The notes beneath the pieces are model-generated. The model saw only the letters and a list, made by a program, of their open reading frames with translations, was not told the DNA's origin and did no database searches. This document shows, one piece after another, positions 633 to 30,707 of a DNA stretch of 64,000 nt (positions are counted from its first letter, which is position 1; each line of letters starts with the position of its first letter). Source of the DNA: Alphaproteobacteria bacterium LSUCC0684 (GTDB taxonomy: Bacteria > Pseudomonadota > Alphaproteobacteria > Puniceispirillales > UBA1172); contig CP166130.1 in NCBI GenBank assembly GCA_041228335.1, forward strand, positions 2,389,001 to 2,453,000, read 5' to 3'. A program made the translations under genes and the position numbers.

Positions 633-1265
633 CTAGCCTTTCGGCCAGCCGTTATGGCCTGCGACATTGTCAAGCTGCTTGCGGAATTCCCTCTCGAAGA
701 GATTAACGGTATTACGGGCAATCTTCAGCCTTAGCTGATCTGCTTCGGCGGGAGTCGTGTCATCGGCAATCGAGGATTCGTATTCCGCGCGTACCACCAG
801 CGTGGCGGACCGGTTGGCCGACGGATGGCTGAACGAAAAAATCCCCTCAAGTTCAACCCGGACAAGGCGACTCTGCTCATTGGTGATGAGCGCCTTCAGG
901 CTTTCTTCACTTTCGAGATTGATCTCGGTCATGGCCGCGCAGGTGATGGTGAAGAGCAGATTGCCGGATCCATCACTCGGGGTGAGACGGCTTCCTGCCC
1001 ATTCCACCAGGAGATCCGATGGCGACGGGGTGAAGAGATGATCGATATAGGGTTTCTCTCCGGGGCCTGAATACTCCGAGATGATATCGATAGCGGCAAC
1101 GGCAAGTGGCACAGGGCCACCTTCAGGACTGGTAAAGACCACCTGGGGTGGGGCGGTGTTCTGGCAGGCGGCCAGCAGGAACGAGCCGGTCAGCCCTGCG
1201 GCCAGGAGATGAAGTGCACGGCGGCGGTTCTGGCCGGTGGCCAGATCGGCATTGGACGTTTTCAT
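633..1265 (-). CDS. Conserved lipoprotein of unknown function
   Basis: A 210-residue protein whose first 35 residues form an export signal: an arginine-rich n-region (QNRRRALHLLAA), a hydrophobic core and the lipobox LLAAC. The RRR-x-hydrophobic pattern resembles a twin-arginine signal, so Tat export followed by lipidation is possible. I chose the ATG at 1265 because AAGAG sits about 7 nt upstream; an in-frame ATG at 1280 has no such site. The mature part has alternating polar/hydrophobic stretches and no motif I recognise. It follows hslO by 76 nt on the same strand and converges on trkH. The function is unknown. Confidence 0.75.
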   Translation of the reverse strand: MKTSNADLATGQNRRRALHLLAAGLTGSFLLAACQNTAPPQVVFTSPEGGPVPLAVAAIDIISEYSGPGEKPYIDHLFTPSPSDLLVEWAGSRLTPSDGSGNLLFTITCAAMTEINLESEESLKALITNEQSRLVRVELEGIFSFSHPSANRSATLVVRAEYESSIADDTTPAEADQLRLKIARNTVNLFEREFRKQLDNVAGHNGWPKG

Positions 1266-1352
1266 GATAAATCTCTTCATCAGCGCGTGGTGTTCCGTTT
1301 CTGATTGATCACCCGGCCTCCGGTATGTCGGCGGGTGATCTGTTGACCCAAA

Positions 1353-7157: not shown

Positions 7158-9101
7158 ATGTCTGACGAAATCACTTTTCCACCCAGCGATGAGGCCGCCC
7201 GGCGCGCCCATGTTGACAACAGCGCATATCAGAAACTTTACGACGCATCGATCGCCGATAATGAGGCTTTCTGGGCGGAACATGGCCGGAGAATTGACTG
7301 GATCAAACCCTACTCGAAAATTGAAAACGTCTCCTACGATGCCAGCAACCTGAGCATCCGGTGGTTTGAGGACGGTACCCTCAATGCCGCCGCCAACTGT
7401 CTTGACCGGCATCTGGAAAGCCGCGGCGACCAGACCGCCATCATTTTTGAAGGCGACGAGCCTACGGACAGCCGTCATATCACTTATCGCGAGTTGCATC
7501 AGGAAGTTTCCAAATTCGCCAATGTTCTCAAAACCCGCGGCGTCAGAAAAGGCGACCGGGTGACCATCTACATGCCGATGATTCCCGAAGCGGCCGTGGC
7601 CATGCTGGCCTGTGCCCGGATTGGTGCCGTTCATTCGGTGGTCTTTGGCGGGTTTTCCCCCGACGCGCTGGCTGGCCGGATTACCGACTGCGACAGTTCC
7701 ACGATCATCACCGCCGATGAGGGCGTCCGTGGCGGCAAGACCATTCCGCTCAAAGCCAATACCGATGCGGCGCTTGAAAACTGCCCGATGTGCAAAACCT
7801 GTATTGTCGTCCGTCGTACCGGCGGAGATATCGGCTGGGTAGATGGCCGCGATTTCTGGTATCACGAAGACATGGCATCGGCATCGGCGGACTGCCCGCC
7901 CGAAGAGATGAACGCCGAAGACCCGCTCTTCATCCTCTATACCTCCGGGTCTACCGGCAAGCCCAAGGGCGTATTGCACACCACCGGCGGCTATATGGTC
8001 TATGCCTCAATGACCCATCAATATGTCTTTGACTATCATGATGACGATGTCTACTGGTGCACTGCCGATGTCGGCTGGGTCACCGGACATTCCTATATTC
8101 TCTACGGGCCGCTGGCCAATGGCGCCATCACGCTGATGTTTGAGGGTGTGCCGACCTATCCGGATTCAAGCCGCTTCTGGCAGGTTGTTGAAAAACACAA
8201 GGTCAATATATTCTACACCGCACCAACCGCCATCCGGGCCCTGATGCGGGAAGGCAACGCTCCGGTGGAAAAAACAGATCGCTCATCCCTGCGCCTGCTT
8301 GGATCGGTCGGGGAGCCGATCAACCCCGAAGCCTGGATGTGGTATCACAAGGTGGTGGGCGATGAACGATGCCCGATCGTGGATACCTGGTGGCAGACGG
8401 AAACCGGCGGGATCATGATCACGCCTCTGCCCGGGGCGACGACGACGAAACCTGGCTCCGCAACCCGTCCGTTCTTTGGCATCAAGCCCGTGCTGGTTGA
8501 TGGTGAAAATAACGTGATCGATGGGGCGGCGGATGGAAATCTCTGCATCGATCGATCCTGGCCCGGCCAGATGCGCACGGTCTACGGAGATCACCAGCGT
8601 TTTGTTGAGACATATTTCACCATGTTCCCGGGACGTTATTTCACCGGCGACGGATGCCGACGCGATCAAGATGGTTATTACTGGATCACGGGCCGCGTTG
8701 ACGACGTGATTAATGTATCCGGTCATCGGATGGGCACCGCCGAAGTCGAATCAGCGCTGGTGTCACATCCGAAAGTGGCTGAAGCGGCCGTGGTCGGCTA
8801 CCCGCATGATATCAAGGGGCAGGGGATTTATGCCTATGTCACGCTGGTTGCGGGCGAGGAGCCGGATGACGCGCTGCATGCCGAGCTCAGGCAATGGGTC
8901 AGGAAGGAAATCGGTCCGATCGCAACCCCGGATCTGCTGCAATGGGCGCCTGGCCTTCCCAAGACACGGTCCGGCAAGATCATGCGGCGGATTCTGCGCA
9001 AAGTTGCGGCGGATGATTTTGCCGAGCTTGGCGATACGTCAACCCTGGCTGATCCGGCGGTGGTGGATGATCTTATCGCCAATCGCCAGAACAGAGGTTG
9101 A
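7158..9101 (+). CDS. acs: Acetyl-CoA synthetase
   Basis: A 647-residue AMP-forming enzyme that activates acetate to acetyl-CoA through acetyl-AMP. The adenylation P-loop [12 protein letters not shown], the WWQTETGG motif, [10 protein letters not shown] and the C-terminal [11 protein letters not shown] carrying the acetylatable lysine are all visible. The ribosome site GAGGGGAGAACC directly precedes the ATG. The 112-nt upstream gap contains a short inverted repeat, GTTCCC/GGGAAC (7050-7075), of unknown meaning. Isocitrate lyase lies 25 kb away in the same window, so the cell has at least part of a route for growth on acetate. Confidence 0.97.
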
Positions 9102-9137: not shown

Positions 9138-9767
9138 TCAGGTTGCCTCAGGCACGATGCCAAGTTCAATCGCCCGGCATACTGCATGGGTCCGGTTGCG
9201 TGCCCCAAGTTTGCCGCGCAGACTTTTGAGGTGATGTTTCACCGTCACTTCCGAAAGACCGTGAATTCGGGCGATTTCCTTGTTTGACTTTCCCGCCAGC
9301 AATCCGGCGAGCATATCCTGCTCTCTGCCGGTAAGCCAGTTATTGGGCAGAAAACTGTTTTCCCCATGATGGGTTGAAACTTCAGCGGGTAGAAAAATCT
9401 CCCCCTCGGCCATCAGCGATATGGCGCTGAAAAACGCCTTGATGCCGATATTCTTGGGCACATACCCCGAAGCTCCTGCCTCAAGGACAAGGCGCATCTC
9501 CGACTGGCTGGTCGGGGCACCCATAATGGCTACCGGAATATTCCGCTGGGTGGCGTCAAGAATACGGGTCAGGCCGCTAAGCCCCTTCATATCCACAAGA
9601 CCTGTATCCAGCAAAATCAGGTCCGGCAGCATGCCACGATGCAGCATGTCCACCGTTTCCATGATCCGGGTTGCGGGAATGATCGTCATCTCGCTGTTCA
9701 TATGACCAGCCTGTTCGATAATCAGATCCCGAGAAAAAATATTTGCATAAGTCAAAATGACTTTCAT
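9138..9767 (-). CDS. LuxR-type response regulator with atypical receiver
   Basis: A 209-residue two-domain regulator: a receiver (about 1-120) and a LuxR/NarL winged-helix DNA-binding domain (about 145-205) with LTGREQDMLAGLL, NKEIAR and VKHHLKSLRGKL. The phospho-acceptor D54 (ILLDTGL) and the conserved lysine K105 (YVPK) are present, but the acidic pair that normally follows the first strand is replaced by YAN (residues 7-9), so Mg2+-dependent phosphorylation may be weak or absent. The ATG at 9767 has GGGAGG upstream and is preferred to an upstream in-frame start. No kinase adjoins it. It sits downstream of the Slam-like/protease pair on the same strand, which makes that pair a possible target. 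Confidence 0.85.
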   Translation of the reverse strand: MKVILTYANIFSRDLIIEQAGHMNSEMTIIPATRIMETVDMLHRGMLPDLILLDTGLVDMKGLSGLTRILDATQRNIPVAIMGAPTSQSEMRLVLEAGASGYVPKNIGIKAFFSAISLMAEGEIFLPAEVSTHHGENSFLPNNWLTGREQDMLAGLLAGKSNKEIARIHGLSEVTVKHHLKSLRGKLGARNRTHAVCRAIELGIVPEAT

Positions 9768-9939
9768 GGTTTGTCCTCCCAATCTAAGCGAATGCGTATG
9801 GGGGAACAGGAAAGCCCAAAGATAAAATACACATCGAATTTGCAATATTGAGTATTATTATACTCAAAATCATTTATCCGAAACTGGCCATAAGGATAGC
9901 GGCAGGCTTGATCCTTTGGAGACCATGGACAAAAGAAGT

Positions 9940-11337
9940 CTAATGCCGGAAGCGTAACGTAAATTTCAGCCCTTCCTCCTGATCCAGCGGGTCCCGGGAC
10001 CTGCTTTTGTAGCGTTCGAACTCGAAGGTCACGGGGTAATCCTGAACAAAAGCATAACTCGACGTCAGCATAAGGGTATCGCGCTTGCGATCATGATGAT
10101 CACGAAGCCAGGGCCGGATATGGGCAAAGCTCTTATGATCTCGTCGTGCCTCGATCAGGAAAGGCATCCGGCCAATCATGAACGGGCCAAGCGCCAGGGC
10201 GATACGATGGTGCTGACCGGTATTCCACCGCGGGATTGCCCGCTCCTGCCCTCTTGTTGCAATCAGCCTGAAGCCAAGTTCGGCCGGGTGCCGTGGCCGC
10301 GGCCTGCCTTGATGTGCAATCCCGATATCAACACCAACATAGCGGGAGGAAAAGGGCGAATCCCCCATCCCCTTCAGTTTTCGGGCGGTGATACCTGAAA
10401 GAACATAAAAGGGCTGATCCAGCCTGCTGGCTGAAGACAACCTGAAAACGCGGTTTTTATATCGCCTGTGCCCTGCCTCCGGGCCAAGGGATTCCGTATC
10501 ATGCCGCAATTGAGCGGAGGCGGAGAGGGTGTGGCGCCCCGCTCGATGGTGATACAATGCCGCAACATGATGCCCCTGACCATGATATTCCCGGTGACTG
10601 GTCGCCCGCGCCATGCTGCCAAGCCGCAAGGTCAACCCCCCCTGAACGAGGGGATATCGCCATTCAAGACGAGGCTGAACTTCTGTCCAGAACCCTTTGC
10701 GGGCAGGTGTCCCGATCACGAAAGTGTGGCGGGGGCTGCCATCAGGCTGGTTCAGATGAAGATGGCCCAGCATGGCATCAACAACCGAACCGGTTTCAGG
10801 CATCACCCGTCTTGCCGGAACAGTCTGACCAAGATTTGCATCATAACCGATGCCTGTTTCCAGATGGAAAAAAGAACCTGATCTTGTGGTGCAATCTAAC
10901 AGAAACCGGGCACTGTCTTCGCTCATCCAGTCGGCCGGGTCCTGCTGTGTTTGACGGAGTTTGCGAAAAAGTGGCACGGCACGCCTGCAGGAGCCATTCT
11001 GCCAGTAGCTGACGGCGATTTCATAATCAAGCCTCCTGCTACCGCCAAGACCTCTTGACTGCGCCTCTTCTGCGAGCGTCGCGGCAGCGGCTACATCACC
11101 CAGACGCCGCCACAAGATCAGGGCGAGAACAACCTTTTCCCCATCCTCAAGAATTTCCGCCCGGTTGGCGCTTAGATAATGGCGAATAGCTGATACATCC
11201 TCACTATCCAGAAGGATCATCAGCGATGCGATCCCTGCCGGGGCCGAAGGTAACGGCAACTCCGCCCGCCCCGCCGTAAAATTAAAATTGGCGGCAACTG
11301 CAAGGGCGCACAAGAACAGGAAAGACCGGCAATGCAT
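9940..11337 (-). CDS. Slam-like outer-membrane protein (TPR plus beta-barrel)
   Basis: A 465-residue protein with a signal peptide (cleavage plausible after GRA), an alpha-helical N-terminal part (about 35-150) with TPR-like pairs such as LALILWRRLGDVAAAATLAEEA, then about 300 residues of alternating hydrophobic strands ending in KFTLRFRH. The junction motif HLETGIGYDANLGQT resembles the start of the barrel in surface lipoprotein assembly modifiers (Slam, DUF560, type XI secretion). Slam proteins move lipoproteins across the outer membrane. The gene lies 74 nt downstream of a lipoprotein protease on the same strand, as a Slam and its cargo often do. A generic barrel protein with a TPR domain is the alternative. 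Confidence 0.6.
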   Translation of the reverse strand: MHCRSFLFLCALAVAANFNFTAGRAELPLPSAPAGIASLMILLDSEDVSAIRHYLSANRAEILEDGEKVVLALILWRRLGDVAAAATLAEEAQSRGLGGSRRLDYEIAVSYWQNGSCRRAVPLFRKLRQTQQDPADWMSEDSARFLLDCTTRSGSFFHLETGIGYDANLGQTVPARRVMPETGSVVDAMLGHLHLNQPDGSPRHTFVIGTPARKGFWTEVQPRLEWRYPLVQGGLTLRLGSMARATSHREYHGQGHHVAALYHHRAGRHTLSASAQLRHDTESLGPEAGHRRYKNRVFRLSSASRLDQPFYVLSGITARKLKGMGDSPFSSRYVGVDIGIAHQGRPRPRHPAELGFRLIATRGQERAIPRWNTGQHHRIALALGPFMIGRMPFLIEARRDHKSFAHIRPWLRDHHDRKRDTLMLTSSYAFVQDYPVTFEFERYKSRSRDPLDQEEGLKFTLRFRH

Positions 11338-11411
11338 CCCACCTTGATGCCACAGTCATGGTTAAAAAAGATTTAACCGATGGAAAATATCTGCGTCGGG
11401 CAACTTACCGC

Positions 11412-13538
11412 CTAGAAATCAATATCGAGGGTGAGGCGAAATTCCCCGTCTTCCGCGCCAGGCTGATGGCTTCTGTTCTGGATATATGTCACCGCTGCCG
11501 TCAATTTCATGCTGTCTTGACCAGCGAGAGGCATATCCAGCCCCGCCATCAGGCGTCTTTCCCGTGACCGGAGAGAGAGATCAAGTTCCACTGGATGAAA
11601 AACTGCAGCCTTGCCTGAACCCGTCACCGGTGCCATCAGCGTCAGTTTCCCATCACGAAGCGCCGGGGGCTGGCTGAGATCAAGCCGCCAGCGCTGCTGC
11701 CCCGGGGTGGTATGCGTTACGCCGATTCGCCAGGAATCGTACCAGATCCCGCCACCATGAATGAGGCTTGGAGAGGCCCCTTCAAGCCTGGTATATCCGG
11801 CGAGGACTTCAGCCGTTGCGGTAACCGGCCCGAGATTCTTCTCCCGGCCCATCGCTACCCAGCCTGAACGATGCCCGCCCAGTTTCAGCGCGCCATATCC
11901 CCCGCCATCAAGCCAGCGGGCGCTGCGATCAAAGCCAAGGCTGATCCATTTTGCCTCTTCTCCCTGCCATTCCTTGAGAAGATGGATGGCCTGCCGTTCA
12001 TTTCCCAGCCCGACAAGATAGCGTGTTATCTCCCCCGATGAAGTGAAAGCGTATCCCGCCCAACGGTCAAGCGGCATGGCTGGAATATCGAGCATCCGCC
12101 GGTCCTCCGCCGTCTGGCCAGGAACCTGCCCGGCGCCGGCAATAAGAAACCGCTGACCTTCCGGAAGCTCCTGCATCACCGCAACCACCGGTGAGGGTTG
12201 ATCGAAAGGCGCAGGCTCCGCCCCCGCCGCAAGTGCCCCAAGGGGGAATTGATACAGCGTGCCATCGAAATCATCTTCAATCACCGCGGCGATTCCATCC
12301 AGCCGGTCAAGAAGCGGCATGGCCATCATCGACGGGAGAGTAAGGCCGCTTCCGGCAAGATCCGCACGCTCGCCATTGCCAAGCAGAACCGCGTTAGGGG
12401 AGATCGGCTGTATCGCCTCATCAATCTGGATGAGTCCATGGCCGAAGACGCTGCGCATCGCCGCCTCACCGCAACTGTCGAGGGTGCATCCGGCCGCGGT
12501 GGTCAACCCGTCATATGTTGCCGTTACCTTCAGTCGTGCCACCGCCATCCGCGGGGTCAACCCCGGGATCTGATCGATCAGCAACCCGATGGCAGCCGAG
12601 ACAACCGGGGCGGCCATGGATGTGCCGGATTTTCGGGTATAGCCACCTTCATGGTCGGCGCCGAGAATACCATTGTCACCCTGGTTGTCACCGCCTCCCG
12701 GTGCCGCCAGACACCAGGCCGCCGCGATACCGCATCGATTGGTATAGGAAGGCTCCACCCCTTCCGTGTCCACCGCAACCACCGCCAGCCAGTTCGGCTC
12801 AAGCTCAGGCAGATGATAGGGAAGACCACTGCGGATAGAGACCTGATTGTCGCTGCCATTGCCTGCCGCCCAGACCATGATCGGCCCGTTCTCGGTGGCA
12901 ACCTGCCGATAGGCCGTGATCTCATCACGCAGGAGATCCTCGATTCGGGACCTGCTCATATCGTCAATCTCGTAATATGATGACCAGGAATGGTTGACCA
13001 CCGGCAGATCACGAGCCAGCGCATCCCCCAGAAGACCGGGAACCATGACGTTGCCGCTTCTGCCCTGAAACGTGCCGGTGCTGCCAAGAATCCGGTAGGA
13101 AACAATCCGGCTGAGCGGCGCCACGCCCTGAATACCGATACCGTCACTTCCAGCCGCTACAAGACTGGCCACATGCGTGCCATGGCCATGTTCATCAAGG
13201 AGGCCATCTGCCGTGCCATGCCAGTCGCCACCACCCAGGACACGGCCGCTGAATTCCTCATGCCCGGCAGCAACTCCACTATCCGCAACGCCAATGGTAA
13301 CGGACTGCCCCGTCCCGCCGGACAAAAACACCTGACTCGCCCCAACCTGGAAAAGCCCCGGGCTGTTCTGCTTTTCGACCACATTAATCGATCCGGTATC
13401 TGCCGGGGGCTGGCGGATCTCCGGCCGGGGCTGGGCGCCGCCACCCCCGCCGCCACCGCCACCGCCGCATCCCGTTAACAAACCGGATATAACAATAAGA
13501 TGATATCCTTTGATCTTCCGTCTATTATCCCTGTTCAT
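11412..13538 (-). CDS. Poly-glycine-tethered S8 serine protease lipoprotein
   Basis: A 708-residue predicted surface protease. Residues 1-24 are a lipoprotein signal with lipobox LLTGC (C24), followed by ten consecutive glycines, a flexible tether typical of surface-displayed lipoproteins. The subtilisin domain (about 65-330) has an intact triad: D86 (VADSG), H119 (HGHGTH) and S307 (SGTSMAAP), with oxyanion N227 (WAAGNG). Cysteine pairs in NRCGIAAAWC and GCTLDSC resemble NalP/SphB1-type proteases. The last 230 or so residues are beta-rich and end in DIDF, like a short barrel. I chose the ATG at 13538 because AGGAG lies 8 nt upstream; a GTG at 13547 is too close to it. The substrate is unknown. 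Confidence 0.85.
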   Translation of the reverse strand: MNRDNRRKIKGYHLIVISGLLTGCGGGGGGGGGGAQPRPEIRQPPADTGSINVVEKQNSPGLFQVGASQVFLSGGTGQSVTIGVADSGVAAGHEEFSGRVLGGGDWHGTADGLLDEHGHGTHVASLVAAGSDGIGIQGVAPLSRIVSYRILGSTGTFQGRSGNVMVPGLLGDALARDLPVVNHSWSSYYEIDDMSRSRIEDLLRDEITAYRQVATENGPIMVWAAGNGSDNQVSIRSGLPYHLPELEPNWLAVVAVDTEGVEPSYTNRCGIAAAWCLAAPGGGDNQGDNGILGADHEGGYTRKSGTSMAAPVVSAAIGLLIDQIPGLTPRMAVARLKVTATYDGLTTAAGCTLDSCGEAAMRSVFGHGLIQIDEAIQPISPNAVLLGNGERADLAGSGLTLPSMMAMPLLDRLDGIAAVIEDDFDGTLYQFPLGALAAGAEPAPFDQPSPVVAVMQELPEGQRFLIAGAGQVPGQTAEDRRMLDIPAMPLDRWAGYAFTSSGEITRYLVGLGNERQAIHLLKEWQGEEAKWISLGFDRSARWLDGGGYGALKLGGHRSGWVAMGREKNLGPVTATAEVLAGYTRLEGASPSLIHGGGIWYDSWRIGVTHTTPGQQRWRLDLSQPPALRDGKLTLMAPVTGSGKAAVFHPVELDLSLRSRERRLMAGLDMPLAGQDSMKLTAAVTYIQNRSHQPGAEDGEFRLTLDIDF

Positions 13539-13655
13539 TTTCGTCACTCCTGACTTCGAACAGGGTATTTGTTAACGAAAGGTTAACGTTAGGGAACTAT
13601 CCCGATGGGGATATGATCCCGACTAATCGTTCCATTCATGACCATTAAGTCCAGT
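13539..13655 (-). promoter_or_regulatory. Upstream region of the surface-protease gene with repeat motifs
   Basis: These 117 nt precede the protease gene and contain two structures. GTTAAC occurs at 13571-13576 and 13582-13587, an 11-nt period that would place both copies on one face of the helix. A perfect dyad, GGGAT-N3-ATCCC, lies at 13608-13620, with a further CGGGAT-like element beside it. These are candidate binding sites for a regulator, possibly the LuxR-type protein at 9138. No clear -35/-10 pair was identified. Assignment as operators is inference. Confidence 0.35.
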
Positions 13656-18318: not shown

Positions 18319-21977
<3,659 letters not shown>

Positions 21978-21986
21978 CTCCCCTCA

Positions 21987-23093
21987 TCAAACCCGCATAG
22001 GCATCAGCACAAAGAGATTGGCATCATCTCCGGGTGACCGGATCAGGGTCGGCGCCGACGCATCGGATAGCGCGAATTCCATCACCTCGCCTTCAACCTG
22101 GTTGGCGATATCCATCAGATAACGTGCGTTAAACCCGATCTCGATATCATCACCCTGATACTGGACTTCGAGGGTTTCCGTCGCGCTGGCCGCATCCGGG
22201 CTTGACGCCGAAAGTACCAGAACGGATGAGCTGATCGCCAGTTTCACCGAGCGTGATTTTTCCGCCGAGATCGTCGAGACCCGGTCCACCGCCTCTTTGA
22301 AAACGGCAACAGGCACCTGCATGATATGGGCGTTTTCCGTCGGGATGACGCGCTGATAATCCGGGAAGGTGCCGTCAATCAGTTTGGTGCTGAGCTGGAT
22401 GCTGCCAAAACTGAGCCGGGCCCTGGTATCGGTCAGCCCGATGCGCACGTCACCTTCAAATTCATCGATGAGTTTGCTCATCTCTCCCACGGCCTTGCGC
22501 GGGATAATGACCGAAGGCATGGTCTCTGCCCCTGCCGGCAGGTCCATCTGGGACCGCGCCAGGCGATGCCCGTCGGTGGAAACAGCCCGTAGCACATGAC
22601 CATCCGCGTGATGCAGATAGATGCCGTTGAGATAGTAGCGGGTTTCTTCGGTCGAAACGGCAAAGCGCGTGTTTTCGATCAAGGCCTTGAGCTCTGCGGC
22701 CGCCAGCACAAACTCGGTGGACATGGCCTGATCGGAAAGCGCCGGAAAATCCTCAACCGGCAGCGTGGGGAGGGCAAAACTTGAACGCCCCGCACTGATC
22801 GTGATCTGACCTGTTCCGGTGGCGGTGATATCGATCTCGGATCCATCGGGGAGTTTGCGAACGATATCATAGAGAAGCTGGGCCGGAGTAGTGACCACGC
22901 CGGGCTCGGCAACCGCTGCTGCGACCGTTTCCACGATATCCATATCCATATCGGTCGCCGTCAGCATCAGCTGGCTGTTTTCCGCCCGCAATACGACATT
23001 GGAGAGAATAGGGATGGTGTTGCGCCGCTCGACAACACTCTGGACATGGCCGAGAGGTTTCAGGAGGGCCGTACGGTCAATGGTCAGCTTCAT
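21987..23093 (-). CDS. dnaN: DNA polymerase III sliding clamp (beta subunit)
   Basis: A 368-residue protein that dimerises into the ring that tethers polymerase III to DNA. The sequence has the three repeated clamp folds and begins MKLTIDRTALLKPLGHVQSV, a typical DnaN N-terminus; it ends in VLMPMRV, matching the usual C-terminal MPMR. I chose the ATG at 23093 because GAGGAAACC precedes it; upstream in-frame codons show no family similarity. It follows dnaA by 131 nt, with a likely promoter in between. Confidence 0.97.
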   Translation of the reverse strand: MKLTIDRTALLKPLGHVQSVVERRNTIPILSNVVLRAENSQLMLTATDMDMDIVETVAAAVAEPGVVTTPAQLLYDIVRKLPDGSEIDITATGTGQITISAGRSSFALPTLPVEDFPALSDQAMSTEFVLAAAELKALIENTRFAVSTEETRYYLNGIYLHHADGHVLRAVSTDGHRLARSQMDLPAGAETMPSVIIPRKAVGEMSKLIDEFEGDVRIGLTDTRARLSFGSIQLSTKLIDGTFPDYQRVIPTENAHIMQVPVAVFKEAVDRVSTISAEKSRSVKLAISSSVLVLSASSPDAASATETLEVQYQGDDIEIGFNARYLMDIANQVEGEVMEFALSDASAPTLIRSPGDDANLFVLMPMRV

Positions 23094-23157
23094 GGTTTCC
23101 TCATTGCTGTGCGGTGGATCATGGGAGAACAGATTTCCCGAGCACATGGTCAATACA

Positions 23158-23189
23158 CAAAATATAGCATATTTTGTTCTTAAATAACC
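23158..23189 (-). promoter_or_regulatory. Probable dnaN promoter with overlapping dyad
   Basis: In the dnaA-dnaN gap, read leftward, there is an extended -10 element TGCTATATT (plus-strand 23161-23169) with a weak -35 (GGTTAT) 17 nt upstream. A perfect dyad, CAAAATA-N5-TATTTTG (23158-23176), overlaps the -10 and could be an operator. The surrounding sequence is clearly AT-richer than the genes. The assignment rests on pattern alone. Confidence 0.4.
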
Positions 23190-23224
23190 AGAATATTGTG
23201 TAATTTAAGGGGCGAAATGCTCCC

Positions 23225-24667
23225 TTAACCGCCCACATTCAGAAGCGATTTCAACATCGCCATATCTTCCGCCATGACCGGGTCTTCGGCCAGCATCTTT
23301 TCCACCTTGCCAACCGCGTGCATCACCGTCGTGTGATCCCGGCCACCAAAATGATGCCCGATTTCAGGATAGGAACTGGTGGTCAGGGTCTTCGATAGAT
23401 ACATCGCAACCTGGCGCGGCTGTACAATGTTACGGGACCGCCGCTTGGAGTGCATTTCATCAAGCCTGATATTGTAATGGCGGGCTACTTCACGCTGAAT
23501 TTCGCCAACCGATACCTGCCTGTTGCTGGCCCGCAGCACATCGGCGAGGACTTCATGCACCGTGTCGATGGTGATGGGAGCGTTGATGAGCATGCCATAG
23601 GCGGCAAGACGATTGATCGCCCCTTCAAGCTCCCGGACATTGGACGTGATCTTATGGGCGAGAAACTCCATCACCTTATCGGGCAGATGAAGCCCTTCCA
23701 TTTCAGCTTTAGACTGAATTATCCCCATTCTGAGCTCGAAGGTGGTCGGATGGATATCGGCCACCATCCCCCAGTTAAGCCGGGAGCGCAGGCGTTCTTC
23801 CATGCCGGAAAGATCCGTCGGCGATTTATCGGCGGAAATGATGATCTGCTTGTTCTGGTCGATAAGCGCGTTGAAAGTGTGAAAAAACTCTTCCTGGGTT
23901 GAATCCTTGCCGCCGATGAACTGCACGTCATCAACCATCAGCACATCCACGGAGCGGAATTCCTCCTTGAACTGCATGGTGTTCTTGTGGCGCAACGCCT
24001 TGATGAACCGGTGCATGAAGACTTCGGCGGAAAGATACACCACCCGGCGCCGTGAAAAACGCTTCTTGATATCCCAGGCGATGGCATGCATCAGGTGAGT
24101 CTTGCCAAGGCCAACCCCGCCATGGATGAAGAACGGATTGAAGACCGGGCTTTCGCTTTCCGCCGTCCGCATGGCAGCGGCATAGGCAAGCTGATTGGAT
24201 TTGCCGACAATGAAATTTTCAAACGTCATGCGCGGATCAAGCCGGCCGCCAAATTCATCATACCCGTCCATCGTTGCCGAAACTTCGGCACGCACCGGTT
24301 GCTCCGAGGCCCGGCGGGGTGATTCCGGCAGGCTGGCAACCCCGCGGCTCAATACGATCTCGACATGATCTACCTCTGGCCATTCGAGCTTGAAATTCGC
24401 CCGCAGCCGATCCGCAAACTGGCTTGAGACACGGGTGCGAACAAGTTTTGTTTCAGCACCAAGGATGATTTTGCTGCCTGTTTTTTCAATGAATTTCAGG
24501 TTGCGGATCCAGGATTTCCATACCGTATCACCCAGATTGTTTTTCATCCGTTGCTGAACACGTCCCCAGGCATCCTGAAGGGCGGCTGTGGTCAATTCCT
24601 CGGATCTCTTGTCGCTGGTCGGAATTTCTCGGGGAGGATGGATTGGTGATGTATCTGTCAATGCCAT
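23225..24667 (-). CDS. dnaA: Chromosomal replication initiator DnaA
   Basis: A 480-residue AAA+ initiator that melts the origin. Domain I covers about 20-90, the AAA+ core has Walker A GGVGLGKTHLMHA and Walker B VLMVDDVQFIGGKDSTQEEFF, and domain IV ends with the DnaA-box recognition signature GGRDHTTVMHAVGKVE. The start is not certain: an ATG at 24667 has AGGGAG only 0-3 nt ahead, while an in-frame GTG at 24697 has no visible ribosome site; I prefer the ATG. It heads dnaA-dnaN-recF-gyrB. Confidence 0.96.
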   Translation of the reverse strand: MALTDTSPIHPPREIPTSDKRSEELTTAALQDAWGRVQQRMKNNLGDTVWKSWIRNLKFIEKTGSKIILGAETKLVRTRVSSQFADRLRANFKLEWPEVDHVEIVLSRGVASLPESPRRASEQPVRAEVSATMDGYDEFGGRLDPRMTFENFIVGKSNQLAYAAAMRTAESESPVFNPFFIHGGVGLGKTHLMHAIAWDIKKRFSRRRVVYLSAEVFMHRFIKALRHKNTMQFKEEFRSVDVLMVDDVQFIGGKDSTQEEFFHTFNALIDQNKQIIISADKSPTDLSGMEERLRSRLNWGMVADIHPTTFELRMGIIQSKAEMEGLHLPDKVMEFLAHKITSNVRELEGAINRLAAYGMLINAPITIDTVHEVLADVLRASNRQVSVGEIQREVARHYNIRLDEMHSKRRSRNIVQPRQVAMYLSKTLTTSSYPEIGHHFGGRDHTTVMHAVGKVEKMLAEDPVMAEDMAMLKSLLNVGG

Positions 24668-24697
24668 CTCCCTGGCTGGATTAAAAACTAAACTCAC

Positions 24698-29227: not shown

Positions 29228-29269
29228 ATGGCGGATTGCCAGAGGATTCCGGACGGCCATGGATATTGA
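29228..29269 (+). CDS. Possible 13-codon upstream ORF overlapping the coaBC start
   Basis: An ATG at 29228 with AAGAGA about 8 nt upstream begins a 13-codon frame ([13 protein letters not shown]) that ends in TGA at 29267-29269, overlapping the coaBC ATG at 29259 in another frame. The best Shine-Dalgarno in the leader serves this short frame, while the sites in front of the coaBC ATG are poorly spaced. Translational coupling is therefore possible. It may also be fortuitous. Confidence 0.35.
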   Translation: MADCQRIPDGHGY

Positions 29270-30707
29270 CCGCATTATTGATGCCCTTGGCGGCGCCTCG
29301 CAGGTGCAGATCCTGCTTGGGGTCGGGCCCAGCGCGGTCAGCAATTACCGGGTCCGGGGCAGTTTTCCCGAATACGCCCGGGTCAAGATCTGGCAGGCGC
29401 TCAAGGCCAAGGGGATCCATGTTGACCCCGAAACCCTGAATATGACCGATACGCTGCCGGAAACCCGGGGGGCGGGCAATTCTCCTCTAGGCAATATTTC
29501 ATCCGGGCAAATGCCTTCGCAACCTTCGATCCTGCTGATCATCAGCGGCGGCATCGCCGCCTATAAGGCACTTGAACTCATCCGCCGTATGCGAGACCGC
29601 AACTGGCAGGTCCGATGTATTCTTACCCGTGGAGGCGCTGAGTTCATCACGCCGCTTTCCGTCAGCGCGCTTTCGGGCGAGAAAACCTATACCGATCTCT
29701 TCTCTCTCACCGATGAGGCGGAGATGGGGCATATCCGGCTTGCCCGGGATGCCGATGTCGTCATTGTTGCACCCGCCACCGCCCATTTTCTGAGCCGGAT
29801 TGCCCATGGCATGGCCGATGACCTGGCAACCACCGCCGTATTGGCCACCGGCGCACCGATCTTGCTGGCACCGGCGATGAACCCGTTCATGTGGGCCAAC
29901 CCGGCAACCCAGGCGAATTGCTCGATCCTCCGTGCCCGCGGCATGCGTTTCAGCGGCCCGGACAGTGGCGATATGGCTTGCGGAGAAGAAGGCGCGGGGC
30001 GACTTGCGGAGCCGGATGTGATCCTAAAGGCGGCCGAAAACATGCTGCCGGGGCGCGGTCGCCTCGCAGGTCGCCGTGCGATTGTCACCTCTGGCCCCAC
30101 CCATGAGCCGATTGACGGCGTGCGGTACATTGCCAATCATTCTTCGGGCAAGCAGGGCCATGCGATCGCTGCGGCGCTGGCCCGTGAGGGGGCCCGGGTC
30201 ACGCTTGTCACCGGCCCGGTTACAGAGCCGCCACCCTACGGCGTCCAGACTGTCGCCATCACCACCGCCGAAGACATGCTCACCGCAGCGCTGGCGGCGT
30301 TGCCCTGTGATATAGCGGTCTGTGCCGCCGCGGTGGCGGACTGGGCTGTTGACGGCGCTAGCGCCAATAAGATCAAAAAGGTCGATGGCAAGCCGCCAAC
30401 CCTTACCTTCAGGGAGAACCCGGATATTCTCGCCACGATCAGCCAGCATGCATCGAGGCCACGGCTTGTTATCGGGTTTGCGGCTGAAACCGATCAGGTG
30501 GTGGATTACGCCACCGCCAAACGTGCTCGCAAGGGCTGTGACTGGATTCTGGCCAATGATGTCGGCGCGGCCCCTGTCTTCGGTGCCGATGAAAACGAAA
30601 TTCATTTCATTACCGCCGAAGGCTCAACCCACTGGCCGCGGATGAGCAAATCCGATGTCGCAGCACAACTGACCGAAGCCATCATCGAGGAGTTCGCCCA
30701 TGGCTGA
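29259..30707 (+). CDS. coaBC: CoaBC bifunctional enzyme with N-terminal helix-turn-helix
   Basis: A 482-residue protein, about 80 residues longer at the N-terminus than usual. Residues 1-60 resemble a Cro/YdaS-like DNA-binding domain ([20 protein letters not shown], then [16 protein letters not shown]). From about 89 comes the CoaC flavoprotein decarboxylase ([38 protein letters not shown] with the active cysteine), then the CoaB synthetase from about 270 ([26 protein letters not shown]). Together they convert 4'-phosphopantothenate and cysteine to 4'-phosphopantetheine for CoA. Internal methionines at 62 and 84 could start a conventional CoaBC but lack ribosome sites. Its end overlaps dut by 8 nt. 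Confidence 0.93.

What the first reader, a model, noticed from the sequence alone, without database searches (positions are those of the whole stretch)
9138..13655. Candidate surface-protease delivery system: Slam-like barrel plus poly-Gly S8 lipoprotein
A lipoprotein protease with an intact D86/H119/S307 triad and a ten-glycine tether after its lipidated cysteine is followed 74 nt later by a TPR-plus-barrel protein resembling Slam (DUF560). Slam/type XI systems carry lipoproteins across the outer membrane, and cargo and Slam are usually adjacent. Seen directly: the motifs, gene order and shared strand. Known: Slam function and the NalP/SphB1 proteases. Inferred: that this barrel exports this protease. 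The pairing of Slam with a catalytically active protease, plus a local regulator, would be an unusual cargo class.
Basis: partly seen in the sequence, partly recalled or inferred. Interest (0 to 1): 0.75.

Follow-up and report, generated by a model that had tools for sequence, protein, structure and literature searches.

The report
Surface protease beside a Slam-like barrel
In a marine alphaproteobacterium, a lipid-anchored protein-cutting enzyme that seems to carry its own outer-membrane domain sits beside a distant relative of Slam, a family that moves lipoproteins to the cell surface; the pairing recurs in related bacteria and could show how such enzymes get outside.

Summary
In detail: S8 lipoprotein (11412-13547, intact triad, ten Gly), 74-nt gap, TPR-plus-barrel protein (9940-11337), NarL/LuxR-type regulator (9138-9767), one strand. 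The barrel misses Pfam PF04575 but is a remote Slam homologue: profile comparison with 22 alphaproteobacterial PF04575 proteins gives 97-99% over TPR and barrel, decoys at most 2.3%; AlphaFold2 gives helices plus 14 strands. The export inference is only partly supported. The protease lacks the Slam-cargo C-terminal domain (0.1%); its C-terminus resembles those of other S8 proteases of the order (97%) and ends like an outer-membrane protein, so it may export itself. In all 10 protease loci with the downstream side visible the barrel follows; two protease remnants lack it. Barrel plus regulator also occur without the protease in 14 genomes (upstream visible in 12). This asymmetry suggests the protease uses the barrel, which has some other role too. 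Best reading: a lipidated, autotransporter-like subtilase assisted by a divergent Slam-family barrel (about 0.4); close rival: a self-exporting protease beside an unlinked barrel. New variant of a known kind. By-product: a conserved palindrome over the regulator's promoter-like site.

The parts
11412..13547 (-). S8 (subtilase) lipoprotein, 711 aa from GTG 13547 (probably starts at ATG 13538)
   Evidence: PF00082 E=2.1e-42; triad and lipobox; only PF00082 match in the genome
13437..13478 (-). Lipobox L-T-G-C plus ten-glycine tether (residues 24-37, GTG numbering)
   Evidence: the Gly run varies from 4 to 10 in the relatives listed
12486..13310 (-). Subtilase domain (residues 80-354)
   Evidence: structural match to subtilisin, Z 33.1, rmsd 2.2 over 270 residues
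11415..12065 (-). C-terminal beta-domain of the protease (residues 495-711), ends ...FRLTLDIDF
   Evidence: predicted strands between 495 and 710, residues 660-711 under pLDDT 50; family profile homologous to the C-termini of 11 other S8 proteases of the order, 97.3%, window sequence alone 10.5%; no PF03797 match
11338..11411 (-). 74-nt gap with a 7-bp perfect inverted repeat (11360-11378); no terminator-like site called in it
9940..11337 (-). Slam-like TPR plus 14-strand outer-membrane barrel protein, 465 aa
   Evidence: AlphaFold2 model; family profile match to PF04575 proteins 97-99%, window sequence alone 69.8%; no PF04575 match in Pfam
10894..11232 (-). TPR-like helical domain (residues 36-148) with invariant Cys117; invariant Cys149 follows directly
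   Evidence: both Cys in 21 of 21 aligned family members
9946..10878 (-). 14-strand barrel domain (residues 154-464)
   Evidence: best structural matches CymA Z 21.1 and OmpG Z 19.6
9138..9767 (-). Orphan NarL/LuxR-type regulator with an atypical receiver domain (no acidic pair near the N-terminus)
   Evidence: PF00196 E=5.1e-17, PF00072 E=8.5e-10; alignment of 9 orthologues
9849..9866 (-). 18-bp palindrome TGAGTATAATAATACTCA over a TATAAT, upstream of the regulator: candidate autoregulatory operator
7158..9101 (+). Acetyl-CoA synthetase-like gene that anchors the locus (name by eye), convergent with the cassette
   Evidence: same neighbour beside the regulator in related loci whose contigs reach that far

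Best explanation
This is a conserved outer-membrane cassette: a lipidated subtilase with its own C-terminal outer-membrane-like beta-domain, a divergent Slam-family TPR-barrel, and an orphan regulator that probably controls its own promoter. Proposed mechanism: the protease leaves the cytoplasm by Sec, is lipidated at Cys24 (ATG numbering) and held unfolded in the periplasm; the TPR domain of the Slam-like protein binds it at the inner face of the outer membrane, and that barrel helps move the lipid anchor and/or the passenger outward while the protease's own C-terminal beta-domain is folded into the membrane by BAM, leaving the catalytic domain tethered outside. Shown here: gene order, motifs, remote Slam homology, conservation of the pair, the asymmetric co-occurrence, and which known C-termini the protease does and does not resemble. 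Inferred: surface location, membrane insertion of the beta-domain, and any physical dependence of the protease on the barrel.
For: Slam homology: barrel family vs 22 alphaproteobacterial PF04575 proteins 97.2% (7 sequences, P 3e-11), 98.6% (10), 99.1% (21, P 1e-18, 393 columns); barrel part alone 96.8% over 282 columns with 21 sequences; decoys PelB, BcsC, BBP2_2, PF03797, S8 C-termini and reversed profiles at most 2.3%. Model: TPR-like helices plus 14 strands. Pairing: in 10 of 10 protease loci whose downstream side is on the contig the next gene on the strand is a barrel of this type, in two families of the order with different upstream neighbours; gaps of 55-99 nt in 6 of the 8 loci measured, 163 and 350 nt in the other two. 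Asymmetry: barrel plus regulator without protease in 14 genomes, 12 with the upstream side visible. Lipoproteins are the known substrate class of Slam (PMC5449769, PMC9090332, passages read).
Against: The protease has no Slam-cargo domain (0.1%) and its C-terminus matches S8 proteases without such a neighbour, two of which (L063_4, L064_5) are also lipidated with Gly runs; G039, the genome of L064, is not among the matches of the barrel search. The next closest S8 relatives (G085, G078; 34-37% identity) have no barrel beside them. Barrel and regulator persist without the protease, and three such genomes (G069, G081, G107; 81-94% complete) show no PF00082 match at all, so conserved adjacency may reflect a shared locus only. 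In G033 and G133 a protease N-terminal remnant stands next to the regulator with no barrel. PF04575 is not met. With fewer sequences the barrel part alone gives only 17.7% (7 sequences) and 72.7% (10); the window sequences alone give 69.8% (barrel) and 10.5% (protease C-terminus). Both structure models are of middling confidence.
Confidence: 0.4

Rival explanations
1. The protease is a self-sufficient lipidated autotransporter (NalP/SphB1 style): its own C-terminal beta-domain carries it through the membrane. The Slam-like barrel serves another, unlinked cargo or function and only shares the locus and perhaps the regulator.
For: C-terminus homologous to those of 11 other S8 proteases of the order (97.3%), with C-terminal Phe in 7 of the 9 cassette proteases listed; lipidated cousins L063_4 and L064_5 have no such neighbour; barrel kept without protease in 14 genomes. 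NalP is described as a type Va autotransporter (PMC5449769, passage).
Against: 10 of 10 conserved adjacency across two families with changed upstream neighbours; no PF03797 match in the cassette proteases or in the 8 other S8 proteases tested and no profile similarity to PF03797.
Confidence: 0.37
2. Simple Slam pair as first proposed: the barrel alone exports the protease as ordinary Slam cargo, and the C-terminal beta-domain is a soluble recognition domain rather than a membrane domain.
For: Remote Slam homology; lipidated partner on the same strand; Gly runs after the lipobox Cys also occur in cargo-like lipoproteins beside alphaproteobacterial PF04575 genes.
Against: No similarity of the C-terminus to 19 cargo-like C-termini (0.1%); more strands than the eight-stranded cargo barrel of the literature (PMC12282271 passages); C-terminal Phe pattern rather than the cargo ending.
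Confidence: 0.12
3. The barrel is another TPR-barrel exporter, for example for a polysaccharide (PelB/BcsC-like), not Slam-like.
For: Foldseek's best hit is BcsC (E=1.1e-9); one relative matches PelB_C weakly (E=1.4e-4, under cut-off); no cargo-like gene noticed beside the protease-less barrels.
Against: Profile probabilities to PelB and BcsC at most 2.3%, against 97-99% to PF04575 proteins; no polysaccharide genes noticed by eye beside the loci listed.
Confidence: 0.05

Closest known systems
Slam / type XI (T11SS) outer-membrane protein, Pfam PF04575 (SlipAM, DUF560)
   Same: N-terminal TPR domain plus predicted 14-strand barrel, colinear profile similarity over 393 columns; adjacent lipoprotein
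   Different: No Pfam match in the window protein; invariant Cys117/Cys149 pair in 21 of 21 family members, while 13 of the 22 PF04575 proteins aligned have no Cys at all; partner lacks the cargo barrel domain; often no adjacent cargo at all
Lipidated subtilase autotransporters NalP and SphB1 (type Va; features partly recalled, lipobox in PMC8151025 passages)
   Same: Lipobox, S8 passenger, C-terminal beta-rich domain ending in Phe
   Different: No detectable PF03797 domain; conserved Slam-like gene next door
Marine cluster 3 T11SS OMPs (Rhodobacteraceae and Roseobacteraceae; PMC12282271)
   Same: Marine alphaproteobacterial Slam-family barrels that mostly lack the canonical cargo gene beside them
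   Different: Those co-occur with DUF1194 genes; here the recurring neighbours are a NarL/LuxR-type regulator, an acetyl-CoA synthetase-like gene and, by family, SCO1/SenC or the S8 protease
CsgD/NarL-type regulators
   Same: LuxR-type HTH with a receiver-like domain; CsgD model E=6.8e-14
   Different: Below the curated cut-offs of the 25 models shown (of 75 matching); acidic pair of the receiver absent

Membership tests
Slam / T11SS OMP (PF04575) | PF04575 match over the curated cut-off | tested here: not met
   no match in the window protein, in 7 family members or in the window genome; best relative of 10 tested E=0.0053, under the cut-off
Slam / T11SS OMP (PF04575) | N-terminal TPR domain followed by a 14-strand barrel | tested here: met
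   AlphaFold2 model, pLDDT 68.8; the strand count is my reading of the listed elements, two 3-residue strands left out
Slam / T11SS OMP (PF04575) | Colinear sequence-profile similarity to known members | tested here: met
   97-99% for 7, 10 and 21 sequences, decoys at most 2.3%; window sequence alone 69.8%
Slam / T11SS OMP (PF04575) | Adjacent cargo with a C-terminal eight-stranded barrel (TbpBBD-like) | tested here: not met
   protease C-terminus vs 19 cargo-like C-termini 0.1%; the 19 were picked by an end pattern and not curated. The cited survey says this feature is rare beside cluster 3 OMPs (PMC12282271)
Slam / T11SS OMP (PF04575) | Translocates a lipoprotein across the outer membrane | not testable with these tools
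   needs an expression and surface-display assay
Classical autotransporter (type Va) | PF03797 beta-domain | tested here: not met
   no Pfam match; profile comparison 0.3-0.9%
Classical autotransporter (type Va) | C-terminal 12-strand membrane barrel | tested here: inconclusive
   about 12 strands from 495 to 710 in the model, residues 660-711 under pLDDT 50; my alternation score did not separate barrel from S8 domain
Classical autotransporter (type Va) | C-terminal aromatic residue of the last strand | tested here: met
   Phe in the window protein and in 7 of 9 cassette proteases listed; L012_7 is cut by an early stop, L053_3 ends in Leu
S8 subtilase | PF00082 over cut-off and D/H/S triad | tested here: met
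NarL/FixJ response regulator | GerE HTH plus phosphorylatable receiver with acidic pair, Asp and Lys (receiver residues recalled) | tested here: not met
   HTH and Asp54 conserved; acidic pair replaced by Y-x-N; Lys absent in the three f3 members of the alignment

The most novel reading that the evidence does not exclude
A Slam-assisted autotransporter: a hybrid of type V and type XI secretion in which a Slam-family barrel moves the lipid anchor or the passenger of a lipidated subtilase that brings its own beta-domain.
Probability: 0.33. Interest if true: 0.75.

Novelty: new variant of a known kind. Interest (0 to 1): 0.5.

Why it matters
A 2021 review (PMC8151025, passages read) states that for lipidated type 5 proteins the final leaflet of the lipid anchor has not been determined. 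A recurring genetic pair of a lipidated subtilase with a Slam-family barrel gives a natural two-gene test of that question. It also extends the Slam family to a branch that curated models miss, in what are probably abundant ocean bacteria, with loci that keep the barrel without the adjacent protease.

Tried and rejected
PF04575 in the own genome gave nothing, and its 14 control genomes gave nothing either, so absence was not concluded from it. The single-protein scan of genome contigs found no relative; the second, with a 69-residue protease alignment, found 8 loci; viral contigs none. No Rfam match over the gathering score in the window. Idea that the barrel is a PelB/BcsC-type exporter: rejected on profile comparison. 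Idea that the protease C-terminus is a Slam-cargo domain: rejected. Idea that it is a PF03797 domain: not supported (one search contained some antisense segments, repaired by using plus-strand matches only). An alternation score for membrane strands did not discriminate. The palindrome as a wider regulon: in G000 it occurs at one place only; further sites in G001, G004, G006, G008, G010, G011 lie in other places, often between convergent genes or in repeats, with no shared cargo-like gene noticed. Promoter and terminator scans were uninformative for operon structure. Fold searches with the protease model show S8 proteases only in the 50 rows listed, so its C-terminus stays untested by fold. 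Slam itself was not among the 50 PDB rows listed for the barrel. No paper in the listings was seen to describe a Slam/S8 pair; the library lacks most subscription journals, and one search returned unrelated uses of the word.

Limits of counts: the ORF caller was crude and mis-called strands in GC-rich loci; in L127 no ORF covered the PF04575 match. Profile sets used part of what was held: 22 of 37 PF04575 loci, 13 of 30 BBP2_2 loci (picked by an end pattern), 21 of 30 PF03797 loci, 9 of 11 PelB and 10 of 11 BcsC loci, 19 cargo-like ORFs of which some are probably not cargo (set sizes). hhalign E-values are for one comparison and are rough; the global option was on, and the same comparisons were repeated locally.
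Full report
What is there. On the minus strand lie an S8 lipoprotein, a TPR-plus-barrel protein and a NarL/LuxR-type regulator, followed convergently by an acetyl-CoA synthetase-like gene. The genome has 2,704,644 bases in one contig. A genome of the same order, G016, lies on a contig of 2,753,527 bases, which I recall as the size of Candidatus Puniceispirillum marinum, so the order is probably SAR116; no call names the organism. The eight related records are titled only Alphaproteobacteria bacterium. Family labels f1 (the window's family) and f3 below are those of the genome search.

Is the barrel Slam-like? Pfam, NCBIfam and a genome search with PF04575 give no match. I therefore took PF04575 proteins from 289 alphaproteobacterial genomes (31 with a match at E up to 0.001) and compared profiles. 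Seven f1 barrels against 22 PF04575 proteins: 97.2%; ten barrels: 98.6%; 21 barrels including protease-less ones: 99.1%, colinear over 393 columns. The barrel part alone gives 17.7% with seven sequences, 72.7% with ten and 96.8% over 282 columns with 21. Decoys (PelB, BcsC, BBP2_2, PF03797, S8 C-termini, reversed profiles) stay at or below 2.3%. The window sequence alone gives 69.8%. PF04575 itself resembles BBP2_2 (96.0%) and PF03797 (86%), so a high value between barrels is not by itself specific; the family here, however, shows it with PF04575 only among the sets tried. AlphaFold2 with seven sequences gives helices 36-148 and 14 strands; VIA-align 2 ranks CymA (Z 21.1, rmsd 3.7, 272 residues) and OmpG (Z 19.6, rmsd 3.7, 260) highest, and BcsC aligns from residue 33 or 34 to 465 (Z 13.9-14.2, rmsd 7.0). 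I conclude a remote Slam homologue that works on the Slam plan, but I do not file it as a PF04575 member because that test was not met.

Is the protease Slam cargo? In the alphaproteobacterial PF04575 loci, 19 ORFs in 13 of 37 loci end in a pattern typical of cargo barrels, about half of them with a lipobox and Gly run by eye. The protease C-terminus does not resemble them (0.1%). Only one of the 37 loci (L114) holds a relative of the window protease among its called ORFs. The C-terminus resembles those of 11 other S8 proteases of the order (97.3% over 171 columns to the very end, 96.9% in reverse; 10.5% for the window sequence alone). It ends in Phe with alternating hydrophobic residues in the window protein, and in Phe in 7 of 9 listed. 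These domains do not match PF03797. The model shows about 12 strands from residue 495, the last 50 residues at low confidence. The C-terminus and the barrel diverge at the same pace (25-33% and 23-31% identity in five genome pairs) while the catalytic part keeps 50-60% and the regulator 46-78%.

Are they a unit? In a search of 136 genomes of the order, the protease-specific segment matches at E of 1.1e-33 or better in 12 (27 at E up to 0.001, the other 15 being weaker S8 relatives). A thirteenth genome, G053, has a protease fragment at a contig end. Ten of these 13 show the downstream side, and in all ten the next gene on the strand is a barrel of this type (G000, G001, G002, G006, G009, G010, G037, G047, G057, G061); in G057 the barrel gene contains a run of N and reads in pieces. 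In G037 and G047 the protease reads as two ORFs, and in G009 it has an early stop. The four distant barrels of f3 were recognised by position and by profile (95.1% to the f1 set, 96.8% to PF04575 proteins, local mode). Two more genomes, G033 and G133, keep only an N-terminal protease remnant next to the regulator and have no barrel there; both lie at contig ends, so a joint deletion or an assembly fault is possible. The barrel model matches 28 of the 136 genomes. Thirteen loci of f3 and G004 have barrel plus regulator but no S8 gene beside them; the upstream side is held for at least 1,319 bases in 12 of these 14. There the upstream gene is SCO1/SenC in the five loci tested. G008 keeps the regulator with a 107-residue barrel remnant. 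Gene order in f3: yggT-like (by eye), SCO1, (protease), barrel, regulator, acetyl-CoA synthetase-like. So the intact protease goes with the barrel, while the barrel does not need the protease.

How it probably works. A protein that depends on a partner is rarely found without it, while the partner may have other clients. That is the pattern seen. With the substrate class of Slam (lipoproteins held by the periplasmic chaperone Skp, PMC9090332 passages) and a protease that is both lipidated and equipped with a beta-domain, I favour a Slam-assisted autotransporter, at about 0.4. Self-export beside an unlinked barrel stands at 0.37, and I cannot separate the two by sequence. A 2025 survey (PMC12282271, abstract and passages) found that marine cluster 3 T11SS barrels seldom sit beside recognisable cargo and raised novel targeting domains as one possibility; the present family fits that remark.

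Regulator. The receiver lacks the acidic pair. Directly upstream lies the palindrome TGAGTATAATAATACTCA covering a TATAAT. It occurs at one place in the 64-kb window (0.06 matches expected at up to three mismatches) and one place in the genome (up to two mismatches), and stands with at most one mismatch upstream of the regulator in all seven f1 relatives examined; in the f3 loci it is degenerate (2-7 mismatches in 18 loci). This suggests autoregulation; no test of binding was possible.

Comparison with the literature. Read in passages: PMC8406197, PMC12282271, PMC5449769, PMC9090332, PMC8151025. None of the passages describes a Slam with an S8 protease partner; the review PMC8151025 leaves the position of the lipid anchor in lipidated autotransporters open.

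Noticed in passing
window 9849-9866: 18-bp palindrome TGAGTATAATAATACTCA over a TATAAT upstream of the regulator, present with at most one mismatch in 7 of 7 f1 relatives; candidate operator.
   Followed up: partly
window 9940-11337, residues 117 and 149: Two cysteines in or just after the TPR domain are invariant in 21 of 21 aligned family barrels and may form a disulfide; SCO1/SenC, a thioredoxin-fold protein (fold recalled), is the neighbour in several related loci.
   Followed up: partly
window 18319-24697: gyrB-, recF- and dnaN-like genes and dnaA lie side by side (dnaA by Pfam; the others by eye), so the window probably covers the replication origin region.
   Followed up: no
window 29259-30707: CoaBC-like protein whose Flavoprotein domain starts only at residue 90; the first 89 residues look like a helix-turn-helix by eye.
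   Followed up: no
L050 1-1539: At a contig end of G013 the protease reading frame runs into a sequence like the TPR part of the barrel of G037, possibly an assembly artefact or a deletion fusion.
   Followed up: no
L327 1-1317 and L328 5700-6279: In G033 and G133 a protease N-terminal remnant is followed directly by the regulator, the rest of the protease and the barrel being absent, at contig ends.
   Followed up: partly
L317, L318: G004 carries about ten near-palindromes of the regulator-site type, most in two clusters with repeated small ORFs, perhaps a small repeat element.
   Followed up: partly
window 633-1280: Lipoprotein-like ORF (by eye) without a Pfam match at E 0.001.
   Followed up: no
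L114 5643-9473: The only one of 37 PF04575 loci with a relative of the window protease: an S8 protein of 784 aa with a lipobox-like start, convergent with the Slam gene, which has a separate lipoprotein-like ORF on its other side.
   Followed up: partly
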